Source: a candidate division WWE3 bacterium RIFOXYB1_FULL_43_24
GTDB taxonomy: Bacteria; Patescibacteriota; WWE3; UBA101185; UBA10185
DNA: 40,287 bases
Assembly: GCA_001773135.1 (NCBI GenBank)
Contig: MEVX01000015.1
Span: 1 to 40,287, forward strand
Direction of reading: 5' to 3'
Positions 11,767 through 25,895 of this stretch are shown here, piece by piece (position 1 is the stretch's first letter; each line of letters begins with the position of its first letter). Made by a program: the position numbers and the translations under genes. The notes under the pieces were generated by a model. The model was not told where the DNA came from and searched no databases. It was given only the letters and a program-made list of their open reading frames with translations.

Positions 11767-13608
11767 TTAGTTTCTTTTCTCGAGGTCAAACAACCTACTT
11801 CTTATAGCGACGTAGCCGGGAGCCCGTAAATTAAAGACTGTCTTGAACGTGTCTCCATTAAGGGTAACTGTTCCATTGTCCGTTCCGAGTGGGACTTTGG
11901 AAGTATACCCGCCGTTGCTAATATCCACGTCAACAGAGGTAACCTTCGAGTATTTTTTGCCGTATTTATCAGCTTTCGAGGCCATTTCATCGAGAGAGTA
12001 CGGATCCCCGCCCCAGCAGCTTGTTGTAACCGGAGAGATGTGGTCTTTTTCGTCTCCCGTTCCGTTACTCCAAACTACATAAGCATTGAGAATGTCGGCC
12101 ATTTCTTTTTCTGAAAGCCATGGGTGGCTGTGACCGCAGGTGTCGTTGCTGCTGTAACTTTTTGTGTACCAGGCTTTGTAGAACCAGGGCGAGCCGGCTT
12201 TCTTTTCATAAGCATTTCCAGGCCAGCTTCCGTATGTGTCCCAGCCCACATTTTCAATGTAACCTCCTGTAGTAGAAGAGTAGTAAGTAACAACCCCATC
12301 GCTTACAATAATGCCTTTTGTGTCATCGACAGCATCTCTCCATTTTGAAGGGGGATTCTCACTTTTACTTTTCAGGAAAACCTGGCAGCTTTGTGTTGTA
12401 CAAATGCAGCTACCCTTTTTCTGGTACCTGTAAGCGTAGGATCTTGCCGCGATAGCCTGAGCTTTTAGAGCCTCTTTGTGCCAATCGCTCGGCATTTCCG
12501 CTATACCATAAAGGTACTTCTGAAAATCCATATCTCCCTGACCTTCTACACACAGCTTGTCGGGAAACCCACTTACCTTATCGACGCCCGTTTTGTAATA
12601 AAACTTTATAATATCCTCATAGCTTTTGCCGGAATCCGCGCGCCCTTTTGCGCCGTATTGGCTCATACCTTTGTAATGTGTGTAGGCTCCATAACTGAAC
12701 GCCGCGTAAGCAGGTTTAAAAGGGGGATCGGGAGTTTTTGATCCGGGGGGTTCGTAATCTCCCACAGAGCCGTATTCATCCCCATACTTTTGTTTCAAAA
12801 TACTTTGTTGTTTTTCGGACAATTCAGAAATCTCCTCTTCAAGATCTTCAAGTTTATTCTGGTAACCCGACTCCTTTTGTGCTACCTCACTTAACTCTCC
12901 CTGCGCAGAATTTTTCCGTGCATCCAGCTCAGCCTTTGCAGCTAAAAACTCTTTTTGTGTATCTTCAAGCTCTCCCTTCAATTTTTCTCCTTCGGCCTTA
13001 TCTTTTTCGTAGCTGTCTATTTCAGAATTTAATCCTGTAATTATTTTTATTGTTTCGTCGGTTACCGCAGTATTAAAAGCCTGGGATAGGGTAGCGAACT
13101 GAAAACCGTTTAAACCCGTGGAAGTGTTTGTTACCAAAAAAGTTTCAATGTCGTTTAGCAGGTGTCTTTTAGAATAAGTACGCACCACTTTGTTTCTAAG
13201 AGATATTTTTTCGGCAAGAGAAGTTTTTCTATCGGCAAGTACTGCATTTATTTCATCAAGCTGTTTTTTGATTTTAGTGATTTCATTTTGAAGGTCATCG
13301 ATCTCTGCTTGAGTAACGCTGATCTGGCTAAGAAGCCCGGAGATTTTTTGTGTTATCTCGTTTTTTGTTTCGCGGATTTGTGAGAGTTTGCTGCTTGTGG
13401 ATTGATATTCGTCTTCTTTTTCTTCGATTTGTTCGGCGTAACATGCGGCTTTGTCGTCGAGATCCGAGATGTTTTTGCAGGGGTCGTCGGCGAGGGTGGG
13501 AAATGCCAACAGTGCTACAACAAGAGAAAAAAATAAAATACGCTTGGCAAGCGCGGGTATTTCTGTATTTTGTGTGCTTGCCAGAACTCTTTTTTGCGGT
13601 GTGGGCAT
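11767..13608 (-). CDS. Exported coiled-coil protein with SpoIID/LytB domain
   Basis: 613 residues. A signal peptide or anchor covers about 23-41 (RILFFSLVVALLAFPTLA). A long coiled coil follows (about 50-280, rich in Glu/Lys/Gln/Leu), similar to the EnvC/PcsB N-terminal hairpin that regulates peptidoglycan hydrolases. The C-terminal half is a SpoIID domain, shown by YLYGIAEMPSDWHKEALKAQ followed by AIAARSYAY. SpoIID proteins are lytic transglycosylases acting on denuded glycan strands. The fusion suggests envelope remodelling, perhaps around the adjacent pilus-like genes. TATAAT (13622-13617) lies 8 nt before the ATG. It is divergent from the first pilin-type gene. Confidence 0.85.
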   Translation of the reverse strand: MPTPQKRVLASTQNTEIPALAKRILFFSLVVALLAFPTLADDPCKNISDLDDKAACYAEQIEEKEDEYQSTSSKLSQIRETKNEITQKISGLLSQISVTQAEIDDLQNEITKIKKQLDEINAVLADRKTSLAEKISLRNKVVRTYSKRHLLNDIETFLVTNTSTGLNGFQFATLSQAFNTAVTDETIKIITGLNSEIDSYEKDKAEGEKLKGELEDTQKEFLAAKAELDARKNSAQGELSEVAQKESGYQNKLEDLEEEISELSEKQQSILKQKYGDEYGSVGDYEPPGSKTPDPPFKPAYAAFSYGAYTHYKGMSQYGAKGRADSGKSYEDIIKFYYKTGVDKVSGFPDKLCVEGQGDMDFQKYLYGIAEMPSDWHKEALKAQAIAARSYAYRYQKKGSCICTTQSCQVFLKSKSENPPSKWRDAVDDTKGIIVSDGVVTYYSSTTGGYIENVGWDTYGSWPGNAYEKKAGSPWFYKAWYTKSYSSNDTCGHSHPWLSEKEMADILNAYVVWSNGTGDEKDHISPVTTSCWGGDPYSLDEMASKADKYGKKYSKVTSVDVDISNGGYTSKVPLGTDNGTVTLNGDTFKTVFNLRAPGYVAIRSRLFDLEKRN

Positions 13609-13738: not shown

Positions 13739-14809
13739 ATGAAGAGTCTCTATAAAAAGGAAATGCACAACTTACATAATTTGTCGGAAATGCCAAAGCA
13801 GTGGTTGTCTACAGGCTTATTTTTACTGCTTATGTTGGGTTTTTCGCAGGGAGCATACGCTCAGTGCGGAGGAGCATCAGAACCTTGTTGTGACAACACC
13901 TTGCCCCCATCAGCGGGGGAAACTGCGTGTCTTTCCGGGACTCTCCCCGCTACCTGTGTGTGCGATTCCGGCCTTTTTTGTGTTATTGGGCCCGCGAATC
14001 CGTTGGTTAGCACGTGTTCTAAGTGTTCGGACGCAGGAGATAGTTGTTGCTGGAATTGGAGCGCTGATTCGTATGTATGCCAGGGGGATACAATCCATTG
14101 CGATCAAGAGTCGAATAAATGTGTCGCTAATAGTTCGTTGCCAACATGTTCAAACGTTGGGGATTCCTGCTGTGTCGCTTTTGGTAGTACAAGGTACTGT
14201 GAAACAAATATTATACCGAACTTGGAGTGTAATTCGGCAACGGGATTCTGCTACATTCCCGATCAAACTTGTGGAACCGCACCGTTGAAATGTTGTCTCG
14301 ACCCGGTCGACCCTGTCCTTAACCCGGGAACCTGTTTGGGAACAGATGTTTGCGATGCTACAAAAGCAGATGCCGCAAGCTCAAAAGGTTATTGTATTGC
14401 TCAGGGCACTTGCGGCGGTCTTGACGAAATTTGCTGTACTACCGGAGATCAGTGCAACGATCCTTCGTGGAAATGTACCCTGGGATTTTGCCGCAACGAC
14501 GTGCCCGACGACTTTGGCGATTCTAGTTACTTCGGGTTTAAGACATATACAGGCCCCATAATAACCGACCTCGCCGGTTTACTAGCCCCAATTTTTAAAA
14601 TCCTCTTTTATACCGGCGTTTTTGTCGGAATTTTGGGTATTATTTACTCAGGTTATCTGCTTATAGCTAGTGAGGGAGACCCGGGAAGGGTAAAAGAAGG
14701 TAAGGACCAGTTTACAGCTGCTATATTAGGCACCCTTTTCGTGTTGTTGTCAGTATTTATACTGCGGGTTATAATTAACAATATCCTGGGGGTTAACTCA
14801 GGATTGTAG
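13739..14809 (+). CDS. Cys-rich secreted protein with C-terminal VirB2/TrbC-like pilin helices
   Basis: 356 residues. A signal peptide (to about residue 41, ...GAYAQC) is followed by about 215 residues with many Cys in repeats of the form 'C-x-x-x-G-D-x-C-C'. These occur at SDAGDSCCWNW, SNVGDSCCVAF and GLDEICCTTG and suggest disulfide-rich modules exposed outside. The C-terminus has two helices, FKILFYTGVFVGILGIIYSG and AAILGTLFVLLSVFILRVII, separated by the polar turn SEGDPGRVKEGKDQ. That helix-turn-helix is the VirB2/TrbC pilin layout also seen in the next three genes. TATACA at 13728-13733 ends 5 nt before the ATG. It could be a pilus tip or adhesin subunit; that is inference. Confidence 0.7.
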   Translation: MKSLYKKEMHNLHNLSEMPKQWLSTGLFLLLMLGFSQGAYAQCGGASEPCCDNTLPPSAGETACLSGTLPATCVCDSGLFCVIGPANPLVSTCSKCSDAGDSCCWNWSADSYVCQGDTIHCDQESNKCVANSSLPTCSNVGDSCCVAFGSTRYCETNIIPNLECNSATGFCYIPDQTCGTAPLKCCLDPVDPVLNPGTCLGTDVCDATKADAASSKGYCIAQGTCGGLDEICCTTGDQCNDPSWKCTLGFCRNDVPDDFGDSSYFGFKTYTGPIITDLAGLLAPIFKILFYTGVFVGILGIIYSGYLLIASEGDPGRVKEGKDQFTAAILGTLFVLLSVFILRVIINNILGVNSGL

Positions 14810-14849: not shown

Positions 14850-15179
14850 ATGAACTTATTATCTTTATTAGAAACTAGGGTATACGCAATTGAACCCATG
14901 CAAACCGATCCTATACAAGGTATGCAAATAGAGTCAGTAACGTCACTCGTTACACTTATCACAAATATCATTATTATAGTAGGGTTGGCGTTAGTAGTGC
15001 TTTTCCTAGCTATAGGGTTCGTTAAGTATGTCACCTCAGGTGGGGACAAAAATGCAGTCGATTCTGCACAGAAAACTCTTACCTACGCAGTTATAGGAGG
15101 TGTCGGTTTGTTGTTGGTCTACGGAATAAGAGCTTTAATCCTAGGTTTGATGGGCGGTGCCGCTGTCCCTGAGTACTAA
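14850..15179 (+). CDS. VirB2/TrbC-like pilin protein
   Basis: 109 residues. Two hydrophobic helices, LITNIIIIVGLALVVLFLAI and YAVIGGVGLLLVYGIRALIL, flank the turn TSGGDKNAVDSAQKT. This is the standard form of VirB2-like proteins found in tandem in CPR genomes. A conventional signal peptide is not obvious; the first 35 residues could be a short leader cleaved after the VYA of TRVYAIEP. It lies 40 nt after the previous gene. A purine-rich GAGGGAGGTG at 14821-14830 is too far away for a normal ribosome site, and a TAAATA box lies 6 nt before the ATG. Confidence 0.75.
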   Translation: MNLLSLLETRVYAIEPMQTDPIQGMQIESVTSLVTLITNIIIIVGLALVVLFLAIGFVKYVTSGGDKNAVDSAQKTLTYAVIGGVGLLLVYGIRALILGLMGGAAVPEY

Positions 15180-15261: not shown

Positions 15262-15573
15262 ATGGATCCTTTTGAATGGACAAAAAGTACTGTTTCTCAA
15301 GTACAAACAGCTGTAGATACGAATAAGCAAACGGATTTGGCGGGACTCGCCACTATGTTTGCTAATATAGCCATAATCATAGGTTTCGGCCTCGCTCTTA
15401 TAGGAATGGCTTATTCTTTTGTCATATTTGTAACGGGAGGAGGAGACCCCAAGACCGTACAAAGGGCTAAGAGGTCCCTTACCTGGAGCGTAATAGCACT
15501 CTTAGTATCGGCGGGAGCGTGGGGAATTAAGTATGTCTTTTTCACTTTATTGGGTATTGGAGACCTAAGCTAA
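15262..15573 (+). CDS. VirB2/TrbC-like pilin protein
   Basis: 103 residues with the same two-helix layout: FANIAIIIGFGLALIGMAYSFVIF, turn VTGGGDPKTVQRAKR, then SLTWSVIALLVSAGAWGIKY. There is no clear signal peptide, and the N-terminal 30 residues are polar and amphipathic. TATATA runs directly into the ATG, so the promoter/start arrangement is unclear here. The gene is third of four in the array, and its stop is 15 nt before the next start. Confidence 0.74.
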   Translation: MDPFEWTKSTVSQVQTAVDTNKQTDLAGLATMFANIAIIIGFGLALIGMAYSFVIFVTGGGDPKTVQRAKRSLTWSVIALLVSAGAWGIKYVFFTLLGIGDLS

Positions 15574-15588
15574 ATATTTAGGAAAAAT

Positions 15589-16077
15589 ATGCTCGATTTT
15601 TTAAACAAACCAAGTACAAAACTTATTTTAGGGTTTTTGATTTTAGGGGTGCTGTTTTACGTTTCATCGATCCGGGGGACTTTTGCTGCAGAATCTATCG
15701 GAGACCCCTATGGATCTACCCCTGCCGGAGAAACTGTAGATATGGACAACCCTACTTGGGATAACTTTGGGAATGTCCTTGTAAGGATATTGAACTGGGC
15801 GGTATACCTTGTGGGCATAGTTTTCGTTTTGGTTATAGCTTACGGCGCTTGGAAGGCTTCTATGGCATTGGGGGACCCCCGTGGTCTTGATTCTGCCAAA
15901 AATACATGGACCTACGCTTTGTTCGGAGCCCTCATAATAGGAGGCTTTTTCGCAATCTTTACCATAGTCTCAGGATTGTTTGGATTTAAAATTGGATTTG
16001 CGGACATTTTCTCGGGGATTATCGATGGTATTAAGGACTTTACAGAAGTTTCCACCCCGCCCCCATCGACGCCTTAA
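15589..16077 (+). CDS. VirB2/TrbC-like pilin protein with signal peptide
   Basis: 162 residues. An N-terminal hydrophobic segment ending about residue 32 (GVLFYVSSIRGTFAAES) looks like a signal peptide. Two helices follow, LNWAVYLVGIVFVLVIAYGA and YALFGALIIGGFFAIFTIVS, with the family turn ALGDPRGLDSAKNTWT. The C-terminus is polar and Pro-rich (STPPPSTP). Upstream TTTAGGAAAAATATG offers a weak Shine-Dalgarno. It closes the array and converges on the next, minus-strand gene; a G-rich run and ATTTTT at 16082-16096 may form a weak terminator. Confidence 0.74.
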   Translation: MLDFLNKPSTKLILGFLILGVLFYVSSIRGTFAAESIGDPYGSTPAGETVDMDNPTWDNFGNVLVRILNWAVYLVGIVFVLVIAYGAWKASMALGDPRGLDSAKNTWTYALFGALIIGGFFAIFTIVSGLFGFKIGFADIFSGIIDGIKDFTEVSTPPPSTP

Positions 16078-16104: not shown

Positions 16105-16707
16105 CTAATACGCGGTTTCATCAGGGGTATCTTGAAACTGTTCTGAAAATACTTGCTTGAATTTGGTTAAAGGCATTATTTCAAAATTGATTACGTAGTA
16201 AACACCTCTGGAAACTTCATTAAATACGATTGCCACACCACTATCAGGGTATACATATACGGTTCCAATGCTGGAGCGGGTAGGATACATGACACTGCCC
16301 GGGGTGCCGAGGCCCAGGTTTTTTAACAAATCGTCCACATTTCTTTCAATTTCCGATACAGGGGTTCTAGTCATAGATAAAACTTTTCCTCTTTCGTCAG
16401 TAATTATTTGTACCGCTGTATTGTTTTTACTATCGCGGAAGCGTGACAAGGTTAGTCCGCCCCTCAAAGCCTCTGTTCCCTTGAGCTCGAGTTCCGGGGT
16501 AGCTTCTTCTACGTCTACCAGGTTTTTACCTATCGAGCTGTCAACGGCAATTGTTTCTACAAATTTTTGTTTTTCGGTAGAAAACGTTGCCGGAGTACCT
16601 GTGGGTTTTGGTTTTTTGGTTCCGTAAATTGAAAGAAATAAAACACCTACAATCAGTAGACCTATGTAGGGGTAGTATTTTTTTAGGCTCTTAAAATATT
16701 TGTTCAT
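16105..16707 (-). CDS. Single-pass membrane protein of unknown function
   Basis: 200 residues from the chosen ATG. One N-terminal helix (about 12-28, YYPYIGLLIVGVLFLSIYG) is followed by a Thr/Pro linker and an outside domain of about 150 residues. That domain has strands such as GTVYVYPDSGVAIVFNE and VYYVINFEIMPLTKF. I do not recognise a family. A longer in-frame ORF reaches 16791, but it overlaps the upstream gene. A TATAAT at 16725-16720, 12 nt before 16707, supports the shorter start with a leader of about 5 nt. The position inside the pilin/peptidase cluster suggests a role in the same surface system. Confidence 0.65.
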   Translation of the reverse strand: MNKYFKSLKKYYPYIGLLIVGVLFLSIYGTKKPKPTGTPATFSTEKQKFVETIAVDSSIGKNLVDVEEATPELELKGTEALRGGLTLSRFRDSKNNTAVQIITDERGKVLSMTRTPVSEIERNVDDLLKNLGLGTPGSVMYPTRSSIGTVYVYPDSGVAIVFNEVSRGVYYVINFEIMPLTKFKQVFSEQFQDTPDETAY

Positions 16708-16726: not shown

Positions 16727-19700
16727 CTAATTAGTGAATCCCCATATGAAATCACGGTGTAGTGGGTACGAGTTCCAAAACGCGTCTTCACTACTTGTGT
16801 CTGCGCCGCCCCCGGCGCAAGTCCCGAAGGTATTAATGTTCACCCAGTCTCCTATTGTTTCTGCGAAATCCTCCCAAATGTCGTTGCCGGGGCCGCAGTG
16901 GTAGTCATAGGTTGGTAGAGATCCCTCGCTGAACGCTGTATTAAACTCTACGGGTATGCCTAGGCGGTAATCGTAGATGTGCCCCAATTCGTGAGCCAGG
17001 AGGTAGTTTATCTTGGGTTGGCTCGTATAGTAAGAAACGCAGGTGTCGCCGAATGTAATTGTGTTGTTTCTGTACGCGCGCCCGCAGTCCTCCCCGGAAA
17101 TTCTTCTTAAAGTGACGGTTCCGGCGGCACCGCATACTTTTGGTAAGAAAGACCCTGTTTTCTGCGAGATAATTATAAGGGCGTTTTCAAAAAATGGTTG
17201 TTCAGTTCCCGATATGTTCTCAAAAACAAAACAGTCCAGAGGTATTGCTGGAGTGCCTATGCGTACGTACCTGATAAAAGACACTTCTTCCTCAGGGATA
17301 GCTTCAAAGTTCGGTGTTGTCACTGATATTTTGTTTTTAATTAAGGAATCTTCATAAGTAGCTCCCGCGAGTGTGATAGGCCCAAAAGTTACTTCTGTGG
17401 TAATCCCCGCTACATATGATGGTGCAACTTCTATTTGTGTGGGACCCTGCACAGGAGCTTCTCCATCTTTTAACATTGTCACGGTGTCTGTTACGACTAT
17501 AGGAGCGTCGGGTATGTCCATTTTGGGTGTAATTTTGATAGTGTAAGTCAGTTGAATTCCGGCGGTTAATTCCTCGTTAGGTATGCTTGTAGTTGCATTT
17601 AAAGGGAAATCGGGCGCACCGGAGAGAAAATTTATAATGACATCTTTTTCAATTTTAATTAAGGCGTTTTCACCTTGCGGTAAACCACCCCCGGCGTAAT
17701 CGCCACCATATCCCCCATTATCTCTTGTCGGGTCTATAGGAGAAATTGAGCTTAGGACTGTGCCAAAAAGTCCGTAAACAAGTATGTAAATCATTATTAA
17801 CGGAATTCCAATAACGTACATAGAAAACTTAACGACTTGCGCGATCTCTTTATCGACTTGAGCCATTGCTTTACTAAGATCGCCCTGTGCCAAAGCACCA
17901 ACGAAATTTTGTGAAAATTCAACAGCTTTTCTCGTTATAAAACGTATAAGGGGTTTTAAAACTTTTTCTATTAGTTTGTCGAAGATCACAGTACCACCGC
18001 CCGTCAGTACGTGCAGACCCTTTGTTGCCAACGCCGCGAGTACATCTGCTGTTAACTTCGAAACTTTTTCCGCGATTATAGTTTTTAATTGAAGTGCGGG
18101 GCGTATAAACTTTTGAAAAACAGGATTCCCGAATAGTTTGTGCTGAAGTTTGTTTAGTGCCATCCCCAGCCTTTGTATGTAACCTGCGTACTGGGTTGTG
18201 ATGTTTAGTGATCCGTAGAAACCATCTTCCTTTCTCAATGCCTTGAATAACTCGAACAGTTTTTCTTCGTCACCTTCTTTTAGATGATCAATGTCTATTC
18301 CGAAAGGCTTTGTTGCTCTCAGCCACTCTCTGTAATTTTCTATCTGTCTGTGTATGTACCTTCCCTGGTACGGATCTTTTGTCCACCACCCGACTACCTT
18401 ATTCTTAAACTTTTCTATCACGTTACCGTCTGCATCAAAAAGATTTTCTTTGCCTGATAGGATATCTTTTATATCCTGGGCACTTAACCCGTTATCTAAA
18501 TCTGCTAAAAAGCCGGAGTAGGTACCAATGAAGGCTAGTCTTGAATCCCCCAAGAATTTCTGTTTTTCCCCATCCAAGTCAATACTGAATTTGTATCGGA
18601 AAGCGCTATTAAAAACCTCGCTGTTTTTCAACTTTTTTGAAACTTGAGAATCGTCAATCACAAGGCCAAAATAGCCTACCTTTGCCAGTCTGTTTTGCAG
18701 AAGTTCTCCGGGAGTGTATCCCACAAGTTTTCTGGAAATTCTGTTCCAAACGAACCTCTCCATAAACTTACCTTGAGTTACTGCGTCGTAAAATTCTTCG
18801 ATGGCATAAGATCCTCTGTCCAGCTCAAGTCTGCTCGCAACCATACGTGCCTGGTTCCCAAAAAATCCCTTGTATGCCGGTAGACCATTTTCCTCAAATA
18901 ATTTCGCAATTTTTAAATTTCCGTTTTCATCCTGTTCGGTAGCAGCAAGAGTTTCGAGTTTCGAGAGGTAGGCACCTATTTGAAGCCTTTTCTCGTACTT
19001 CCCAAATTTTCCCGGCAGTGTTACATCACTATCTATTTTTCTTAGGAGATCTCGCTGGATGCTGGGGTCAAAAAGTCCGCCGCCTGTTAGTTCCTTACCA
19101 TTTACTTTGATGTTACTGATAATGTTTAAAAGTTCCCGTTCAGATATTTTGTTAACATTTTTTACAACCCCGTTTTTTATTTCCTTGCCTTCAAACTTAT
19201 TCAAAGCATCCCAAACTTGTTGTAGGTACTCCTTGTAAGCATCCCCCGATTTTTTTAGGTCGTCCGCAATAACTGCCAAACCCTTGTCTTTCAAGTCAAT
19301 TTTTCTCAATTCCTCTGAAATACTATCTATGCCCCCTTTTCCGGTAGCGACTCCAAGATCATTAATTCCAATGTGCTTTTGCAGGTCTGTTTTCAGAAAT
19401 AAAAGTCTGTCCTGGAATCTTGTTAATCCGCTTTCCGCTACAGTATCATCTCCTCTTTTTTTCGCCTCGGGATGTCCGGAGTAACGCGCCTCGAGAAATC
19501 CCTTTAGACCGTAATCAGCAAATATAGCTGTTCGGCTACTACCCATCTTCGACGCCATTTCCTGCTTGGCAGATAATGCTGCAGCTGCTTTTTTGAAATT
19601 CTCTCTTTCTGTAGAATCCTCAAAGAGTTCCCCGAATAAATCCTTTCGCGTCTTTGCTACAAACGCTTTTTTTCCATCTAGTTCTGCCCCCTGTTTTAGT

Positions 19701-20527
19701 CTGTCACCGCTCTCACCCAGCTCCGGTATTTTTCCGTCTAACTCTTCTGCCAGCGCCCCCGCGAGTGCCCCCAAGAACGTGTCGTGTTTCGAGTCTCTTT
19801 TAGGGCCTGCTTTGATGTATCTTTCAACTTCCACGGCATTTTTCGCCATTTCCTGATAACCACGTTTACCACTACTTACTACGTAATCGGCGTCCTTGAA
19901 GTTAAATACCCCCGATCCCTGCGCTCCGTCTCCTGCCATCGCTCTTGTAGTAGCAGCAATTGCGCGCCCTCCCGATACTCCCAGCTCGCTCATCTCTCCT
20001 TCTTGTTGGATTCCAAGCGCAGCTTTCCATAGGGCGGTCCTAACGTTGTTATCATAGTCGGTAAGGTCAATTGGTGAGGATTCCAGACCCCAACCCTCTT
20101 TTTTAAATCTCAGCCCGGTGCCCGCCTTTATCCAGCTTTTAACCGTGCTATCGACGACTTTACCCGGGTCTTTCCACTCGGTTGGGTCGAGAGAAAGACT
20201 CACACTTGTAACTCCCGGCATGACGTCTTGGTCGTAATCATCCATTTGTTCTACAGGGATATTTTCCACGCTGTAGATTGCTCTCATATTGCGTTTGAAA
20301 TCGTCGACGTATCTATCTAAAAACCACTTGGGAATATTGCCGGTATCTATGGACATTTGATCCAACTGCTCCAGCCAATAATCTGCGTAATATTGGTAAC
20401 CGCTAAGAAAATTTCCTCTAGGGGGTCTGTAGGCTTTCTGCCCTTCAAGATATCCCGGAAAGAGCGGGTTTACTGACTCGCCTTCTTTTCTCGGTATTGA
20501 CCCTGGAAATAGGGGATTGTCTGCCAT
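16727..20527 (-). CDS. Giant membrane protein with C-terminal HELGH metallopeptidase domain
   Basis: 1266 residues. The N-terminus repeats NPLFPG twice (residues 4-9 and 20-25), with no signal peptide. About 870 residues of mixed helical sequence follow that I cannot assign. A transmembrane helix lies at about 899-926 (MYVIGIPLIMIYILVYGLFG), then a Gly-rich linker. A beta-rich domain (about 940-1110, ending some 70 residues before the zinc site) resembles the Ig-like DUF11 surface repeats, for example LTYTIKITPKMDIPDAPIVV. At the C-terminus LLAHELGHIYDY gives the zinc site H1179/E1180/H1183. WEDFAETIGDW about 40 residues on carries a plausible third ligand Glu, and six or more Cys suggest disulfides. 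TAGAAT lies 8 nt before the ATG. It is a candidate membrane-tethered surface protease. Confidence 0.75.
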   Translation of the reverse strand: MADNPLFPGSIPRKEGESVNPLFPGYLEGQKAYRPPRGNFLSGYQYYADYWLEQLDQMSIDTGNIPKWFLDRYVDDFKRNMRAIYSVENIPVEQMDDYDQDVMPGVTSVSLSLDPTEWKDPGKVVDSTVKSWIKAGTGLRFKKEGWGLESSPIDLTDYDNNVRTALWKAALGIQQEGEMSELGVSGGRAIAATTRAMAGDGAQGSGVFNFKDADYVVSSGKRGYQEMAKNAVEVERYIKAGPKRDSKHDTFLGALAGALAEELDGKIPELGESGDRLKQGAELDGKKAFVAKTRKDLFGELFEDSTERENFKKAAAALSAKQEMASKMGSSRTAIFADYGLKGFLEARYSGHPEAKKRGDDTVAESGLTRFQDRLLFLKTDLQKHIGINDLGVATGKGGIDSISEELRKIDLKDKGLAVIADDLKKSGDAYKEYLQQVWDALNKFEGKEIKNGVVKNVNKISERELLNIISNIKVNGKELTGGGLFDPSIQRDLLRKIDSDVTLPGKFGKYEKRLQIGAYLSKLETLAATEQDENGNLKIAKLFEENGLPAYKGFFGNQARMVASRLELDRGSYAIEEFYDAVTQGKFMERFVWNRISRKLVGYTPGELLQNRLAKVGYFGLVIDDSQVSKKLKNSEVFNSAFRYKFSIDLDGEKQKFLGDSRLAFIGTYSGFLADLDNGLSAQDIKDILSGKENLFDADGNVIEKFKNKVVGWWTKDPYQGRYIHRQIENYREWLRATKPFGIDIDHLKEGDEEKLFELFKALRKEDGFYGSLNITTQYAGYIQRLGMALNKLQHKLFGNPVFQKFIRPALQLKTIIAEKVSKLTADVLAALATKGLHVLTGGGTVIFDKLIEKVLKPLIRFITRKAVEFSQNFVGALAQGDLSKAMAQVDKEIAQVVKFSMYVIGIPLIMIYILVYGLFGTVLSSISPIDPTRDNGGYGGDYAGGGLPQGENALIKIEKDVIINFLSGAPDFPLNATTSIPNEELTAGIQLTYTIKITPKMDIPDAPIVVTDTVTMLKDGEAPVQGPTQIEVAPSYVAGITTEVTFGPITLAGATYEDSLIKNKISVTTPNFEAIPEEEVSFIRYVRIGTPAIPLDCFVFENISGTEQPFFENALIIISQKTGSFLPKVCGAAGTVTLRRISGEDCGRAYRNNTITFGDTCVSYYTSQPKINYLLAHELGHIYDYRLGIPVEFNTAFSEGSLPTYDYHCGPGNDIWEDFAETIGDWVNINTFGTCAGGGADTSSEDAFWNSYPLHRDFIWGFTN

Positions 20528-20584: not shown

Positions 20585-21907
20585 ATGATTAAACCAACTA
20601 AAACTTTATTATCCACTGTGATTTTTTCGTTGATGTTTCTTCTTGGAATAAATAAAGTACTTGCAGCCGACCCATGCTTAGTCGAACAGAATATGTTCGA
20701 CAAGAACTTGCTTAGCGACATAATCGGAATCCCCCTTACTACAAAAGATTTTGTTACATCGGTTGCGACGTCAGCTTACAGTACTGTTTCGGGGTACGGT
20801 GTTACTGAGACAGTAGGTTGCTCACAGTATGTTTTTAATACGCTCGGTGTTGAAGGGGAATCGCAATTTACACAATGCGGCGGTACCGCGGATCAAACAT
20901 GCCAGGAGATTACAAACACACTTCCGGGTCCAACAGGGAGTACCTGGCTCGACAAACAATATGCCAACAGAAGTTCGGGCACTCTTTTAGGATTGGCTTA
21001 TATGGCTGAGGATTTTACACACAATGAGCCGTTGCCAGCTAACTTAGCTTTTTATGTGAACGATACTATATCCAGAATTCCTATAATAAATAAAACTTAC
21101 GCCGCCCAGGTTGATTATGGGCACAGTTTGCTAAATTCAATTCTCAATGCATGGAAAGTATTCCGTAACCTTGCTTACGCGGCAATGGCTTTGATACTTC
21201 TGTACACAGGGATAATCATTATTCTTAGACGAAAAATAAACAGCCAGTTGGTAGTGAGTGTACAGTACGCATTACCTAGGATAGTAATTGCAATAATATT
21301 GATAACCTTCAGCTATCCGATTGGCGCAACTCTCGGAAGTTTGGGATGGACGCTGTTTAAGAGTAATTGGGCTATTGCCGGAAGTATGTTCGTCGATACT
21401 TTGAGAGACACCGATGCTGCAGCGTTTGTGGATGCGGGATCTCTAAAAATGTGGGCATTATTAATACCTTTGCACGTATTAGTAGCCAACGGACCTTTGT
21501 TTTTGCTCGTCATCCTTTTAGTTATAATTATCTATCTGGTTGCGGGCCTTATTTATAATTTCAAAGCAATTATTTTGTACCTGAAGATTGTTTTCTCCAT
21601 ACTTACGGCTCCTATAGAATTTGCACTTGCAGCAGTGCCGGGCAATGACGATAAGTTTAAAGGGTGGTTTTTACGAATGTTCAAATACGTTATAACTTTA
21701 TTTGGTATGGGTATCATCGTGCCCCTGGGGACTATAATCGCAATTTTGGTAATTGAGGGATATTCTACGGAGCTGGCAGGAAACGGCGGGGTACTTTTTG
21801 CAATGGTAGCCCCGGTATTTATAATCCTTTACTGTTTCGGTATTGGTATAGGGATGGAAAAAAGAGTTGAGGAGTTCCTCGGAACCGGACAGCAGAAGAG
21901 AAGATAG
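20585..21907 (+). CDS. VirB6/TrbL-like polytopic membrane protein
   Basis: 440 residues. A signal peptide (to about residue 27, VLAADPC) is followed by a 170-residue outside domain with several Cys. The rest contains six or so helices, for example LAYAAMALILLYTGIIIILR, LFLLVILLVIIIYLVAGLIY and VIVPLGTIIAILVIEG-like segments. The conserved-looking patch APIEFALAAVPGNDDKFKGW lies in a cytoplasmic loop, as in VirB6-type inner-membrane channel subunits of type IV secretion. It has a leader with a good ribosome site, AGAGGAATTAATG, unlike most genes here. It may form the pore that assembles or exports the adjacent pilin-like proteins. Confidence 0.72.
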   Translation: MIKPTKTLLSTVIFSLMFLLGINKVLAADPCLVEQNMFDKNLLSDIIGIPLTTKDFVTSVATSAYSTVSGYGVTETVGCSQYVFNTLGVEGESQFTQCGGTADQTCQEITNTLPGPTGSTWLDKQYANRSSGTLLGLAYMAEDFTHNEPLPANLAFYVNDTISRIPIINKTYAAQVDYGHSLLNSILNAWKVFRNLAYAAMALILLYTGIIIILRRKINSQLVVSVQYALPRIVIAIILITFSYPIGATLGSLGWTLFKSNWAIAGSMFVDTLRDTDAAAFVDAGSLKMWALLIPLHVLVANGPLFLLVILLVIIIYLVAGLIYNFKAIILYLKIVFSILTAPIEFALAAVPGNDDKFKGWFLRMFKYVITLFGMGIIVPLGTIIAILVIEGYSTELAGNGGVLFAMVAPVFIILYCFGIGIGMEKRVEEFLGTGQQKRR

Positions 21908-22010: not shown

Positions 22011-25000
22011 TTACCGATAGCACGCATTCCACAGAGCACTCTTTTGACTCCACCAGGCACCCCCGTCTTCAGGGGATCCGGCGCCGGCCGTACCGAATGC
22101 AAGCTGTTCAATTTTGGGGAAGGCAGTACTCCAATCCCATCCTTGGCATGAACCGCTTCCGTTAGCTAGGGAGGCTGCTGCCGCAAACGTAGCATCAAGG
22201 AAATTGCATCTGGAAGCTATTTCTGCTCTTCCATCGGACAGCCCTGCAAAAGCATTTTTATAGGAATCCAATGCGATAGTATTGTTAAACCAAGTTAATA
22301 TCCAGTCGTATGGACCGACCGCAGCCCCGTTACTGTCATCACATTGGGGAAGTCTGCCGTACCAGGGTAAGCTACCGTCTAACAACATCGCCTCCCCTGA
22401 AAGTGAGAAAAGCTGCTGGTATAAGGGTATTTTAGTTTTACCGATAACGCTTAAATAAGTAAGTATCGAGGCTGCCGGCACCTTAAATTTATCTGCCGCA
22501 GCATTTACAATGCCGATAAAAGCGGGAGAAAGGGCCCCTATGCTTCCTGTGTCATCAAACTTAATCTGGCAGTCACCGATATTAGCGGGCAACGTACACG
22601 ATGCATCCAGATTAGAAGTAAGGGTACCAAAATCGATTATCGGCGGTTCAGGTACCGGAGCGAGAGAGCAGTCCCACGTACCGAACCAACCTTTTTCATT
22701 GTTATTACAATGGTAAAAAATATCTTCTCCGCCTGTGAAGTAGTTGACATACAGTGCGTGCGCGGAGATCATTTTGTATTCGGGGGAGGCTCCTCCAAAA
22801 CCTGCTATATCTTTGTTTCTGTTGGTGTTCTTGTTGTCGGTGCCGGCTGGGGTTACAGACGTATCAGCAGAAGAAAAGGCTAGAGTTCCATAAGTTTTGT
22901 TTCCGGGCCTTGCCAGTTTTTTCCAAATTTCATTGTTGATAAGAACTGTACTGTCTACATTGTAGGTTTCTCCTTCGTATCCTCTTAATATTTCTTGAGT
23001 TTGTTTAAAATTCGAGTCTTTATCTATGTCTGCAGAGCATGCGTAAGGACCGGCGTCCTCCATGTTACAAGCGGGGCCTATTTTGGCAATACCGGCGTCT
23101 ACCCAACAAGATATAGACATAGCGTCGTCAGGGCATTTGAAAGCAGTATTTCCGTCGGGGCATATATATTCAGCGCAAGGCACTTCGGCTGTTGGGGCTG
23201 TAACAAGTAGCGCGCCCTCCCAATATGCCGTGCTTCCAAGCCCCGGGCACCCGTTACTTTCGGTTACTTTAAAACCATAATTATCTTCTATGCAATCTTC
23301 ATCAGGACCGCCGACGCAATCAATTTTCTTTTGAGCACATGCAAGGCTAAATGGAGTACTCGTTCCTTCAATCAAATCGGTTGCTTGGCAATCGCGGATT
23401 ACTGATGTGGAAACCTTAGGTTCAGATGTTTCTATCCCACCGCCCGATATTCTGCAAGAGTAAGTTTCTTTATGTTCAAAAACGCCACAACTTTCAACCC
23501 TGCAAGTACGGTTAATATCGCCGCTATCGTCGGTAAATCCCAACCTTTCATAGCATTTCCTCCCCGAATCGATTGGGTTCCAGGGATAGCACAGGTCGTT
23601 ACCCCACATATCCCATGTTACATGTCCTACGCTGGGTTGTTTGAAAATATCCACAAAATTATCCTCGCTCAGATTAAACGTTACTGTTAAATCGTCTCTT
23701 CTTTCACCATCTTCTAATGGGTAATCGTTTTTTCTATCAAAATAAGATTTTCCCGTGTCGCTAGTGCCCGGCCAAAGGTATTGTATTGCTAGTTGGAACA
23801 ACGCGTCCCCCAAGGTTTGGTCATAGGAACCATCCCCGTGGGCAGTAGTTAGGAGACTGTCATACGCGTCGAATCTGTTGATAGTAAAGGAGTTGGTTTC
23901 CAATGCTTGTGTTCTGTTAACGCCCGCTGTTGTCCTAAATATAGTTGTAGTGGCGGTTTGAGGACTTTTATCAGGTAATACGAAATCTACCAAAGATTGG
24001 AAATAGTGGTCCGGGTTTCCTTGAAACAGGTTATTTATAAGTAATGACGCTTGATTCGCTAGTGTGAACTCTTCCAGGTTTGAGGTGTGTTGGGGGTTGA
24101 CATTCGAGTTTTCGCAGTAGGCTAAAAGATTTGAACCCGCATCCTCTATTTTTATTGACCCCTGTTGATATATCGCTTTATCTGCTGATGTTTCCCCCGG
24201 GCGTTGAAGAACATATGCTAACGGACGTTTTATACCGTCAGCCTCTGCAGTCACTGCTAATTCTGTGGATAATATCCCCCCGCTCATGGGCGTCAGTCCG
24301 TTATTTAATGAGTAGTTGTTATCTGAGTAATAAGTTCCTCCCTTAACGGGAATTCCTGCTTTTTCGTTCCCCATGGTGAAAGCTATTTGGTTAGCGTTTG
24401 CAGATGCCCCGGGAGCCCAGTAAGTATCGTTTATTCCCTCAAAACCGTACCCCATCTTCATGGAGGTTCCTTTTATACCGTAGAAGTAAGCAAATTCCGG
24501 ATTCCAGTATGTCTTATCTAATGTGTAGGAGCAGCCGGCCGTTCCCAACCGGCAATAATCCCAGGGAGGCTGAATATCTTTTATTTTAATCTTTTTTCCT
24601 ACATTTGTGCACACCTCAGTTTCCATAACGGTACCGCCCGGATTTAGATACGCGTCTGACTCCGAACGTAAAATGGCAGGGTTGGCTAAGTTTCTTGCGG
24701 GTCCTGCGCTATACTGTCTGTTTCTGTAATCCCCCTCATATCCTGACGACGCGGTATTGCACGATCTCAGTTCTGCACAATCAGGAAGAGTATTTGTTTT
24801 ATCAGGATCGGTAAACTTTCTAAGGTAGACGCTTCCCTTACAATTACTGAATATAGTGTGAAGCAGTTGGGCGGGGGCGGTAGGGTTTTGAGCGTAACTC
24901 ACAACGTCTTGGCGGGCTGTCAAATCTTTGAAAAAAAGTAAGGTGTTTTTTATTGGTATGTTTGGAAGAAAATTCATGGTTGTAAAACGGGGCTCTGTGT

Positions 25001-25895
25001 ACAGAGCCTGTTCATAGGTATTTAGATCATCATCAGTAGGGTTTGTTTGACTTGGGCGTAGGCAAAGTTGGCTGACCTCCGGCCAATCTTTGTAAACTGA
25101 AAGACAGTCTTGATAATAGAAGGCTCCTTTATCGGGGACGTATTGGTCCGGGTTTAGTAACCTATCCGTGAAGTATCCGAAAACACTACCCCTCGTTGTG
25201 TATCTCGAATCTGCTGCTTTCACTCCCAACGTGAAGTTATACTCCACTTGAGGTTGTAGCTCCTTTCCGAAGTACCCTTCGAAAGAAACCGGGGAGTCAG
25301 TAGCCAGGGGATCCGGCCGTTTTATATCACAACTTAAAAAAGAACCCGGTGCTACAGGATCTAAAAATTCTCCGGGAGCCTTGTATGTGGAGGTTTCCGG
25401 GCATTTAAGGGGGGCATTCAGCACAAAGCTTTGAAAAGAGGGAACTTTGTAGAGACCCGCGAGCTTGCTATCGCAAACGAAAGCAAGGTATCTTATTTGG
25501 TTACCTCCAATTCTTCTCATAGTGATGTTGTAATATCCATTTTCGTCCGTTGACGTAGAGGAAAAAGGATGCGTTAAATTACCATTCTTTTTACACGTGG
25601 TGTAGTTGGGGTCACACTCATAAACGTAAACAGAAACCCCTTTTGCGGGGGCGTTGGGGTGTGTCGCGGCTCCGCTTCCTGTAGTTACCTCCCGCGGAGT
25701 TGCACTTCTTACCACCCCGCACACTACTGATAGACGTGGATCATTGTCAGGATTAATGCAGGTCGTGCCCGGTTCAAAAAGATCCATGGAAGTTCCGGTC
25801 AGCTGCGCATAGGTGGGTGTCCTTCCTATTATTAACACAAAAAGTATTAACAAAAAGGAATAAATATATTTTCTGACCAGATATTTGTACCTCAT
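22011..25895 (-). CDS. Very large secreted Cys-rich protein with carboxypeptidase-regulatory-like domain
   Basis: 1294 residues. A signal peptide ends near residue 30 (TPTYAQ). Residues about 57-125 look like a transthyretin-like carboxypeptidase regulatory fold (VSVYVYECDPNYTTC ... TDENGYYNITMRR). The remainder is polar, rich in Asn, Thr, Gly, Tyr and Cys, without recognisable enzymatic motifs. A dense Cys region near 830-990 (CRVESCGVFEHKETYSC; CPDGNTAFKCPDDAMSISC) suggests disulfide-bonded modules. There is no C-terminal anchor. TATAAT (25913-25908) lies 12 nt before the ATG, giving a leader of about 5 nt. It is probably a fibre or adhesin linked to the pilus-like cluster; that is inference. 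Confidence 0.7.
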   Translation of the reverse strand: MRYKYLVRKYIYSFLLILFVLIIGRTPTYAQLTGTSMDLFEPGTTCINPDNDPRLSVVCGVVRSATPREVTTGSGAATHPNAPAKGVSVYVYECDPNYTTCKKNGNLTHPFSSTSTDENGYYNITMRRIGGNQIRYLAFVCDSKLAGLYKVPSFQSFVLNAPLKCPETSTYKAPGEFLDPVAPGSFLSCDIKRPDPLATDSPVSFEGYFGKELQPQVEYNFTLGVKAADSRYTTRGSVFGYFTDRLLNPDQYVPDKGAFYYQDCLSVYKDWPEVSQLCLRPSQTNPTDDDLNTYEQALYTEPRFTTMNFLPNIPIKNTLLFFKDLTARQDVVSYAQNPTAPAQLLHTIFSNCKGSVYLRKFTDPDKTNTLPDCAELRSCNTASSGYEGDYRNRQYSAGPARNLANPAILRSESDAYLNPGGTVMETEVCTNVGKKIKIKDIQPPWDYCRLGTAGCSYTLDKTYWNPEFAYFYGIKGTSMKMGYGFEGINDTYWAPGASANANQIAFTMGNEKAGIPVKGGTYYSDNNYSLNNGLTPMSGGILSTELAVTAEADGIKRPLAYVLQRPGETSADKAIYQQGSIKIEDAGSNLLAYCENSNVNPQHTSNLEEFTLANQASLLINNLFQGNPDHYFQSLVDFVLPDKSPQTATTTIFRTTAGVNRTQALETNSFTINRFDAYDSLLTTAHGDGSYDQTLGDALFQLAIQYLWPGTSDTGKSYFDRKNDYPLEDGERRDDLTVTFNLSEDNFVDIFKQPSVGHVTWDMWGNDLCYPWNPIDSGRKCYERLGFTDDSGDINRTCRVESCGVFEHKETYSCRISGGGIETSEPKVSTSVIRDCQATDLIEGTSTPFSLACAQKKIDCVGGPDEDCIEDNYGFKVTESNGCPGLGSTAYWEGALLVTAPTAEVPCAEYICPDGNTAFKCPDDAMSISCWVDAGIAKIGPACNMEDAGPYACSADIDKDSNFKQTQEILRGYEGETYNVDSTVLINNEIWKKLARPGNKTYGTLAFSSADTSVTPAGTDNKNTNRNKDIAGFGGASPEYKMISAHALYVNYFTGGEDIFYHCNNNEKGWFGTWDCSLAPVPEPPIIDFGTLTSNLDASCTLPANIGDCQIKFDDTGSIGALSPAFIGIVNAAADKFKVPAASILTYLSVIGKTKIPLYQQLFSLSGEAMLLDGSLPWYGRLPQCDDSNGAAVGPYDWILTWFNNTIALDSYKNAFAGLSDGRAEIASRCNFLDATFAAAASLANGSGSCQGWDWSTAFPKIEQLAFGTAGAGSPEDGGAWWSQKSALWNACYR

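What the first reader, a model, noticed from the sequence alone, without database searches (positions are those of the whole stretch)
16727..20527. 1266-residue membrane-tethered HELGH peptidase inside the pilus-like cluster
The protein joins about 890 uncharacterised residues, one helix, Ig-like beta sequence and a C-terminal zincin site (H1179, E1180, H1183, with EDFAE about 40 residues on). The N-terminus repeats NPLFPG twice. A surface protease fixed beside pilin genes could process pilins or the 1294-residue secreted protein, or attack a host cell. I know of no described family with this architecture.
Basis: partly seen in the sequence, partly recalled or inferred. Interest (0 to 1): 0.6.

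Follow-up and report, generated by a model that had tools for sequence, protein, structure and literature searches.

The report
Swappable protease head on secretion-system hydrolase
A large membrane protein beside pilus genes in an uncultured tiny bacterium ends in a zinc protease that sits where its relatives carry cell-wall-cutting enzymes, so it most likely opens a cell envelope for a type IV secretion machine that was thought to lack such an opener.

Summary
The 1266-residue ORF lies on the minus strand of a WWE3 (Katanobacteria) contig, with one transmembrane helix (about 903-921) and a C-terminal HExxH domain. H1179, E1180, H1183 and E1219 are invariant in all 10 aligned zincin sequences. 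AlphaFold (pTM 0.87) plus Foldseek give a Pro-Pro-endopeptidase-like zincin fold.

Relatives change the interpretation. In 22 of 26 other genomes of the family the gene keeps the same place, between a VirB6-like gene and four T4SS pilins, but the catalytic domain differs: zincin, CHAP, M23 or C39, and in one case none. The types are interspersed on the N-terminal tree. In another CPR order the same zincin is fused to SLT-like and M23-like domains and encoded directly after VirB4. The next gene (204 aa) changes family together with the enzyme.

Best reading: a VirB1-like, T4SS-linked envelope hydrolase with an exchangeable head and matched membrane partner. Pilin processing is not supported. 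Whether the target is the cell's own wall, the host's wall or a wall protein is open. Substrate and activity are untested; a characterised zincin effector, VgrG2b, did not cut peptidoglycan. Mur ligases were not found in this genome, although PBPs and FtsW/RodA are present.

The parts
16727..20527 (-). 1266-aa T4SS-linked envelope hydrolase ('BIG')
   Evidence: ORF; homologues in same syntenic place
20453..20518 (-). two NPLFPG motifs at the extreme N-terminus, residues 4-9 and 20-25
   Evidence: [NS]P.[YF]PG conserved, one or two copies, in most homologues
17822..20527 (-). N-terminal region, residues 1-902, mostly helical, predicted cytoplasmic, no Cys
   Evidence: no fold match
17765..17821 (-). 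transmembrane helix, residues about 903-921
   Evidence: hydropathy
17243..17695 (-). Ig-like beta-rich spacer, residues about 945-1095 (missing in several homologues)
   Evidence: sequence comparison
16730..17242 (-). zincin domain, residues 1096-1266
   Evidence: alignments A1/A5, model, Foldseek
16979..16993 (-). HELGH, H1179 E1180 H1183
   Evidence: invariant H, E and H in 10 of 10
16859..16873 (-). EDFAE; E1219 is the likely third zinc ligand (aligned with PPEP-1 E185)
   Evidence: invariant in 10 of 10; alignment to PPEP
16105..16707 (-). companion gene, about 200 aa, one TM plus exported domain
   Evidence: present in all 9 zincin-type loci; other families in other types
20585..21907 (+). 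VirB6-like polytopic membrane protein
   Evidence: syntenic in nearly all loci; the VirB6 name is inferred, no Pfam hit
13739..14809 (+). T4SS pilin with Cys-rich N-terminal part
   Evidence: PF18895 5.7e-6
14850..15179 (+). T4SS pilin
   Evidence: PF18895 6.3e-5
15262..15573 (+). T4SS pilin
   Evidence: PF18895 1.7e-6
15589..16077 (+). T4SS pilin-like
   Evidence: PF18895 0.0015
11767..13608 (-). secreted coiled-coil plus SpoIID domain (lytic transglycosylase family)
   Evidence: PF08486 1.8e-19; syntenic
22011..25895 (-). 1294-aa Cys-rich secreted protein
   Evidence: syntenic in most loci, absent in several

Best explanation
The protein is a VirB1-like accessory of the WWE3 type IV secretion/pilus machine: a cytoplasmic region of about 900 residues with an N-terminal motif (possible docking), one membrane span, and an exported peptidase head that locally opens a cell envelope so that the machine can be built or can reach through. 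The head is an exchangeable module. Relatives carry CHAP, M23 or C39 peptidases in the same place; here it is a zincin of Pro-Pro-endopeptidase-like fold using H1179/E1180/H1183/E1219. The downstream 204-aa membrane protein is a matched partner (inhibitor, activator or substrate guide) that changes family with the head. Shown by sequence: the module swap, the synteny, the conserved ligands, the fusion of the same zincin to SLT-like/M23-like domains next to VirB4, and the partner linkage. Inferred: envelope peptide as substrate, docking to the T4SS, and the partner's role.
For: Head swap at a fixed locus. CHAP: E 6.8e-6 and 5.6e-5; M23: 1.7e-24 in L055, 0.005 in L045, and profile A3 matches only M23 chains in PDB; C39_2: 1.1e-8. 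The N-terminal tree needs 8 changes of type, and zincins as one clade are rejected, p-AU 2e-5. Zincin fold and ligands. In another CPR order, TM+SLT-like+zincin (L065, L079, L082), with M23-like added (L081), encoded right after VirB4 (PF19044, up to 1.6e-27) and PrgI. SpoIID gene in the same cluster. Companion family follows head type: 9/9 zincin, 7/7 divergent M23, 4/4 CHAP, none for C39 or headless. Cys asymmetry fits an exported head.
Against: No activity data. Characterised zincins of related fold cut proteins (PPEPs, PMC12828418), and the zincin effector VgrG2b showed no peptidoglycan hydrolase activity (PMC6899460). SLT matches are below Pfam's cut-off (E 0.005-0.06) and the SLT profile found no SLT in PDB. 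VirB4 is about 70 kb away on the same contig. One homologue (L036) has no catalytic head.
Confidence: 0.6

Rival explanations
1. It is a surface protease of the PPEP kind that trims proteins on its own surface (pilins, the 1294-aa secreted protein or adhesins).
For: Nearest solved folds are PPEP-1/2/3 (TM about 0.6, prob 1.0); PPEP-1 cleaves adhesion proteins (PMC11460543). The window's fourth pilin ends in STPPPSTP.
Against: CHAP, M23 and C39 heads replace it beside the same pilins. The Pro-Pro pilin tail is only in four same-genus loci and absent in the other five zincin loci. The zincin is fused to SLT-like and M23-like domains elsewhere.
Confidence: 0.2
2. It attacks the wall or envelope of a partner (host) cell, as part of an episymbiotic penetration device, rather than its own wall. 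(This overlaps with the best explanation: same enzyme class, different target cell.)
For: No Mur ligase was found in this genome and at most one or two in family members, against 4-5 in some sister families. A pilin-bearing T4SS is essential for epibiotic growth in Southlakia epibionticum (PMC10633639).
Against: PBPs and FtsW/RodA are present, so the cell may build a wall from imported precursors. The head is tethered to the cell's own membrane.
Confidence: 0.35
3. The C-terminal domain is a polymorphic toxin-like effector and the downstream 204-aa protein its immunity factor; the protein is a delivery platform.
For: Variable C-terminal enzyme plus co-varying downstream gene, as in effector-immunity pairs; VgrG2b/PA0261 is a zincin-immunity pair (PMC6899460).
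Against: Heads are wall-hydrolase types kept one per genome. The companion for M23 types is TM plus Big_5 and recurs near VirB4-linked hydrolases. The m204 family also occurs in G175 after an M23-bearing protein beside PrgI. No release or processing site was noticed.
Confidence: 0.12

Closest known systems
VirB1-like hydrolases of monoderm T4SS (TraG of pIP501, PrgK of pCF10; SLT plus CHAP)
   Same: T4SS-encoded hydrolase with peptidase heads including CHAP and M23
   Different: About 900-residue N-terminal region, zincin head, no SLT in the window protein, lies beside VirB6-like/pilin genes and not next to VirB4
Pro-Pro endopeptidases PPEP-1/2/3
   Same: HExxH plus downstream Glu, predicted fold (TM about 0.6)
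   Different: 10-18% identity, extra conserved cysteines, tethered multidomain protein, Pro-Pro specificity unknown
VgrG2b C-terminal zincin effector of Pseudomonas aeruginosa
   Same: Periplasm-acting HExxH domain at the end of a secretion-machine protein, with a partner gene
   Different: Only a very weak sequence match (E 1.6), T6SS not T4SS, no shared architecture
Patescibacteria T4SS described in PMC12102498
   Same: VirB4, PrgI/VirB3, VirB6 and pilin arrays
   Different: That survey found VirB1 homologues mostly not associated with virB4 and suggested that pilus biogenesis may not need VirB1; this module may fill that role

Membership tests
VirB1-like T4SS hydrolase | Encoded with T4SS genes | tested here: met
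   Between VirB6-like and pilin genes; VirB4 on the same contig
VirB1-like T4SS hydrolase | SLT (lytic transglycosylase) domain | tested here: not met
   No SLT in the window protein; SLT-like domain only in zincin relatives of another order, sub-threshold
VirB1-like T4SS hydrolase | Peptidoglycan cleavage | not testable with these tools
   Inferred from CHAP/M23 heads of homologues
Pro-Pro endopeptidase (PPEP) | HExxH plus downstream Glu ligand | tested here: met
Pro-Pro endopeptidase (PPEP) | PPEP fold | tested here: inconclusive
   Best Foldseek hits, prob 1.0, TM 0.61, but E 5e-3 and rmsd about 5 A
Pro-Pro endopeptidase (PPEP) | Pro-Pro cleavage | not testable with these tools
   No assay
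Pfam ATLF (PF07737) | Profile match above the curated cut-off | tested here: not met
   No hit for the window protein; E 0.017, below cut-off, for relative L078
Effector-immunity pair | Neutralising cognate partner | tested here: inconclusive
   Companion co-varies with the head, but neutralisation was not tested

The most novel reading that the evidence does not exclude
WWE3 bacteria carry a T4SS-bound envelope-opening arm whose catalytic head and matched membrane partner are exchanged as a block (zincin, CHAP, M23, C39). In cells without Mur ligases it works on a partner cell's wall, making an interchangeable wall-breaching tip of episymbiosis.
Probability: 0.3. Interest if true: 0.8.

Novelty: new variant of a known kind. 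Interest (0 to 1): 0.6.

Why it matters
Surveys of Patescibacteria T4SS found few VirB1 hydrolases near virB4 and asked whether the pilus needs one (PMC12102498). A large, profile-invisible protein with a swappable peptidase head at a fixed place beside VirB6-like and pilin genes offers a concrete candidate, and the enzyme-partner co-variation makes its regulation testable. It would also put a zincin into a role normally held by CHAP or M23 enzymes.

Tried and rejected
Pfam and NCBIfam gave nothing meaningful for the 1266-aa protein and PADLOC gave nothing. The N-terminal model (pLDDT 67.9, pTM 0.67) has no fold match in PDB. Viral fold search gave only weak matches, for example phage minor capsid proteins. 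Pilin Pro-Pro tails as a general substrate: rejected, not conserved. First thought that the cells have no wall because Mur ligases are missing: withdrawn after PBPs and FtsW/RodA were found. Strict zincin-only use of the m204 family: weakened by a relative after an M23-bearing protein in G175. The 204-aa family resembles BamE/SmpA by eye only; profile search found nothing useful.

Full report
Observation. The ORF at 16727-20527 is on the minus strand, 1266 aa with an ATG start. It carries NPLFPG at residues 4 and 20, HELGH at 1179-1183 and EDFAE at 1219-1223, and one hydrophobic segment at about 903-921. The first 900 residues contain no cysteine; the part beyond the membrane holds six. The same asymmetry is seen across the family, as expected for a cytoplasmic N-terminus and an exported, disulfide-bonded C-terminus. 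Pfam shows no match and NCBIfam only an E 0.05 chance match. The window lies in a 778-kb, 95% complete genome; close homologues belong to candidate division WWE3.

Zincin domain. The 9 zincin-type sequences align with invariant HExGH, ED, four cysteines and a PTY motif. Adding a distant sequence from another CPR order leaves H1179, E1180, H1183, E1219 and D1220 invariant. AlphaFold gives pLDDT 86.8 and pTM 0.87. Foldseek ranks Pro-Pro endopeptidases first (6fpc: E 5e-3, prob 1.0, TM 0.61), with other zincins behind. A profile search of PDB sequences also puts PPEPs first (E 0.08) and aligns the downstream Glu; in PPEP-3 the third ligand is a Glu on a C-terminal helix (PMC12828418). E1219 is therefore the likely third ligand. 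Model coordinates could not be inspected, so ligand geometry is inferred.

Head swap. Homologues occur in 22 of the 26 other genomes of the family. The locus order is nearly constant: smpB, secreted protein of about 1300 aa (absent in several), VirB6-like, this protein, a small membrane protein, four pilins, SpoIID protein. After the membrane span the homologues differ: zincin in 9 genomes including the window, CHAP in 4 (one with an added C39_2), C39 in 1 (L048), nothing in 1 (L036), and M23 in the others. M23 is clear in L055 (1.7e-24), weaker in L045 (0.005), and the profile of the divergent M23 group matches only M23 chains in PDB (E 0.006-0.09). The CHAP group is supported by Pfam E 5.6e-5 and 6.8e-6. 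On the N-terminal tree the types are interspersed: 8 changes, one-clade zincin rejected with p-AU 2.3e-5, and zincin L040 is sister to M23-type L039 with 99% SH-aLRT. Several branches are long, so the exact number of swaps is uncertain.

Zincin elsewhere. A profile search found the domain in another CPR order. There it sits in TM+SLT-like+zincin proteins (L065, L079, L082; L077 partial), with an M23-like domain added (L081), or as zincin plus M23-like (L078). SLT matches are below Pfam's cut-off (0.0047-0.064), but a Glu in the expected place and a Gly-x-Met-Gln motif are conserved. In the loci examined the gene lies directly after a VirB4-type ATPase gene (PF19044, 1.6e-27 to 2e-23 in the three tested), with PrgI upstream (5.1e-7, tested in L088). 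This is the position and build of a VirB1-type hydrolase. In the window's genome VirB4 lies on the same contig about 70 kb away, with a PrgI-like gene upstream and no such hydrolase downstream.

Companion gene. The gene after the hydrolase is a small single-span protein in most loci, but of different families: the window's type in 9/9 zincin loci (at least 228 bits; at most 17 bits for the best non-zincin neighbour), TM plus Big_5 in 7/7 divergent-M23 loci, and a third type in 4/4 CHAP loci. L048 (C39) and L036 (headless) have none. Zincin and companion trees share their main split, which the N-terminal tree also allows. Only 2 independent pairs on supported branches (4 on all) bear on this, so the linkage is consistent but not statistically proven. 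A distant member of the window's companion family in G175 follows an M23-bearing protein and precedes PrgI, so the family goes with T4SS-linked wall enzymes, not strictly with zincins.

Target. This genome shows no Mur ligase (PF08245) and most family members show one short match, against 4-5 in some sister families. PBPs (three) and FtsW/RodA (one) are present. The cells may therefore assemble a wall from imported precursors, or use these enzymes otherwise. The hydrolase could act on its own wall, on a host wall, or on an envelope protein. VgrG2b, a periplasm-acting zincin effector, lyses cells without cutting peptidoglycan (PMC6899460), so wall peptide as the substrate is inference.

Conclusion. 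The function is better explained by the slot than by the zincin alone: a T4SS-linked envelope hydrolase with an exchangeable catalytic head and a matched partner. It is not a VirB1 family member by sequence, since the window protein has no SLT domain, but it probably works like one. It bears on the suggestion that Patescibacteria pilus biogenesis may not need VirB1 (PMC12102498).

Noticed in passing
G000 whole genome; family f1: No Mur ligase (PF08245) in this genome and at most 1-2 in the family, while three PBP transpeptidases and FtsW/RodA are present: a wall polymerisation kit without the usual precursor ligases.
   Followed up: partly
11767-13608: Secreted coiled-coil protein with a SpoIID domain, syntenic with the T4SS cluster in most family loci; a possible glycan-cutting partner of the peptide-cutting head.
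   Followed up: partly
13739-14809: First pilin carries a Cys-rich N-terminal part; total length varies widely among homologues (82-620 aa).
   Followed up: no
L045, L046, L041, L050-L053 C-termini: Divergent M23-like group lacks the usual first His ligand near the Asp and has an invariant upstream HG motif instead.
   Followed up: no
L043:6104-10489: One homologue carries C39_2 and CHAP domains in tandem.
   Followed up: no
L036:8779-11865: Homologue that ends after the spacer with no catalytic head and also lacks the companion gene.
   Followed up: partly
L091:6534-12736: PrgI-like, VirB4 and dnaN genes lie close together near the likely replication origin, in line with a report for other Patescibacteria (PMC12102498).
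   Followed up: no
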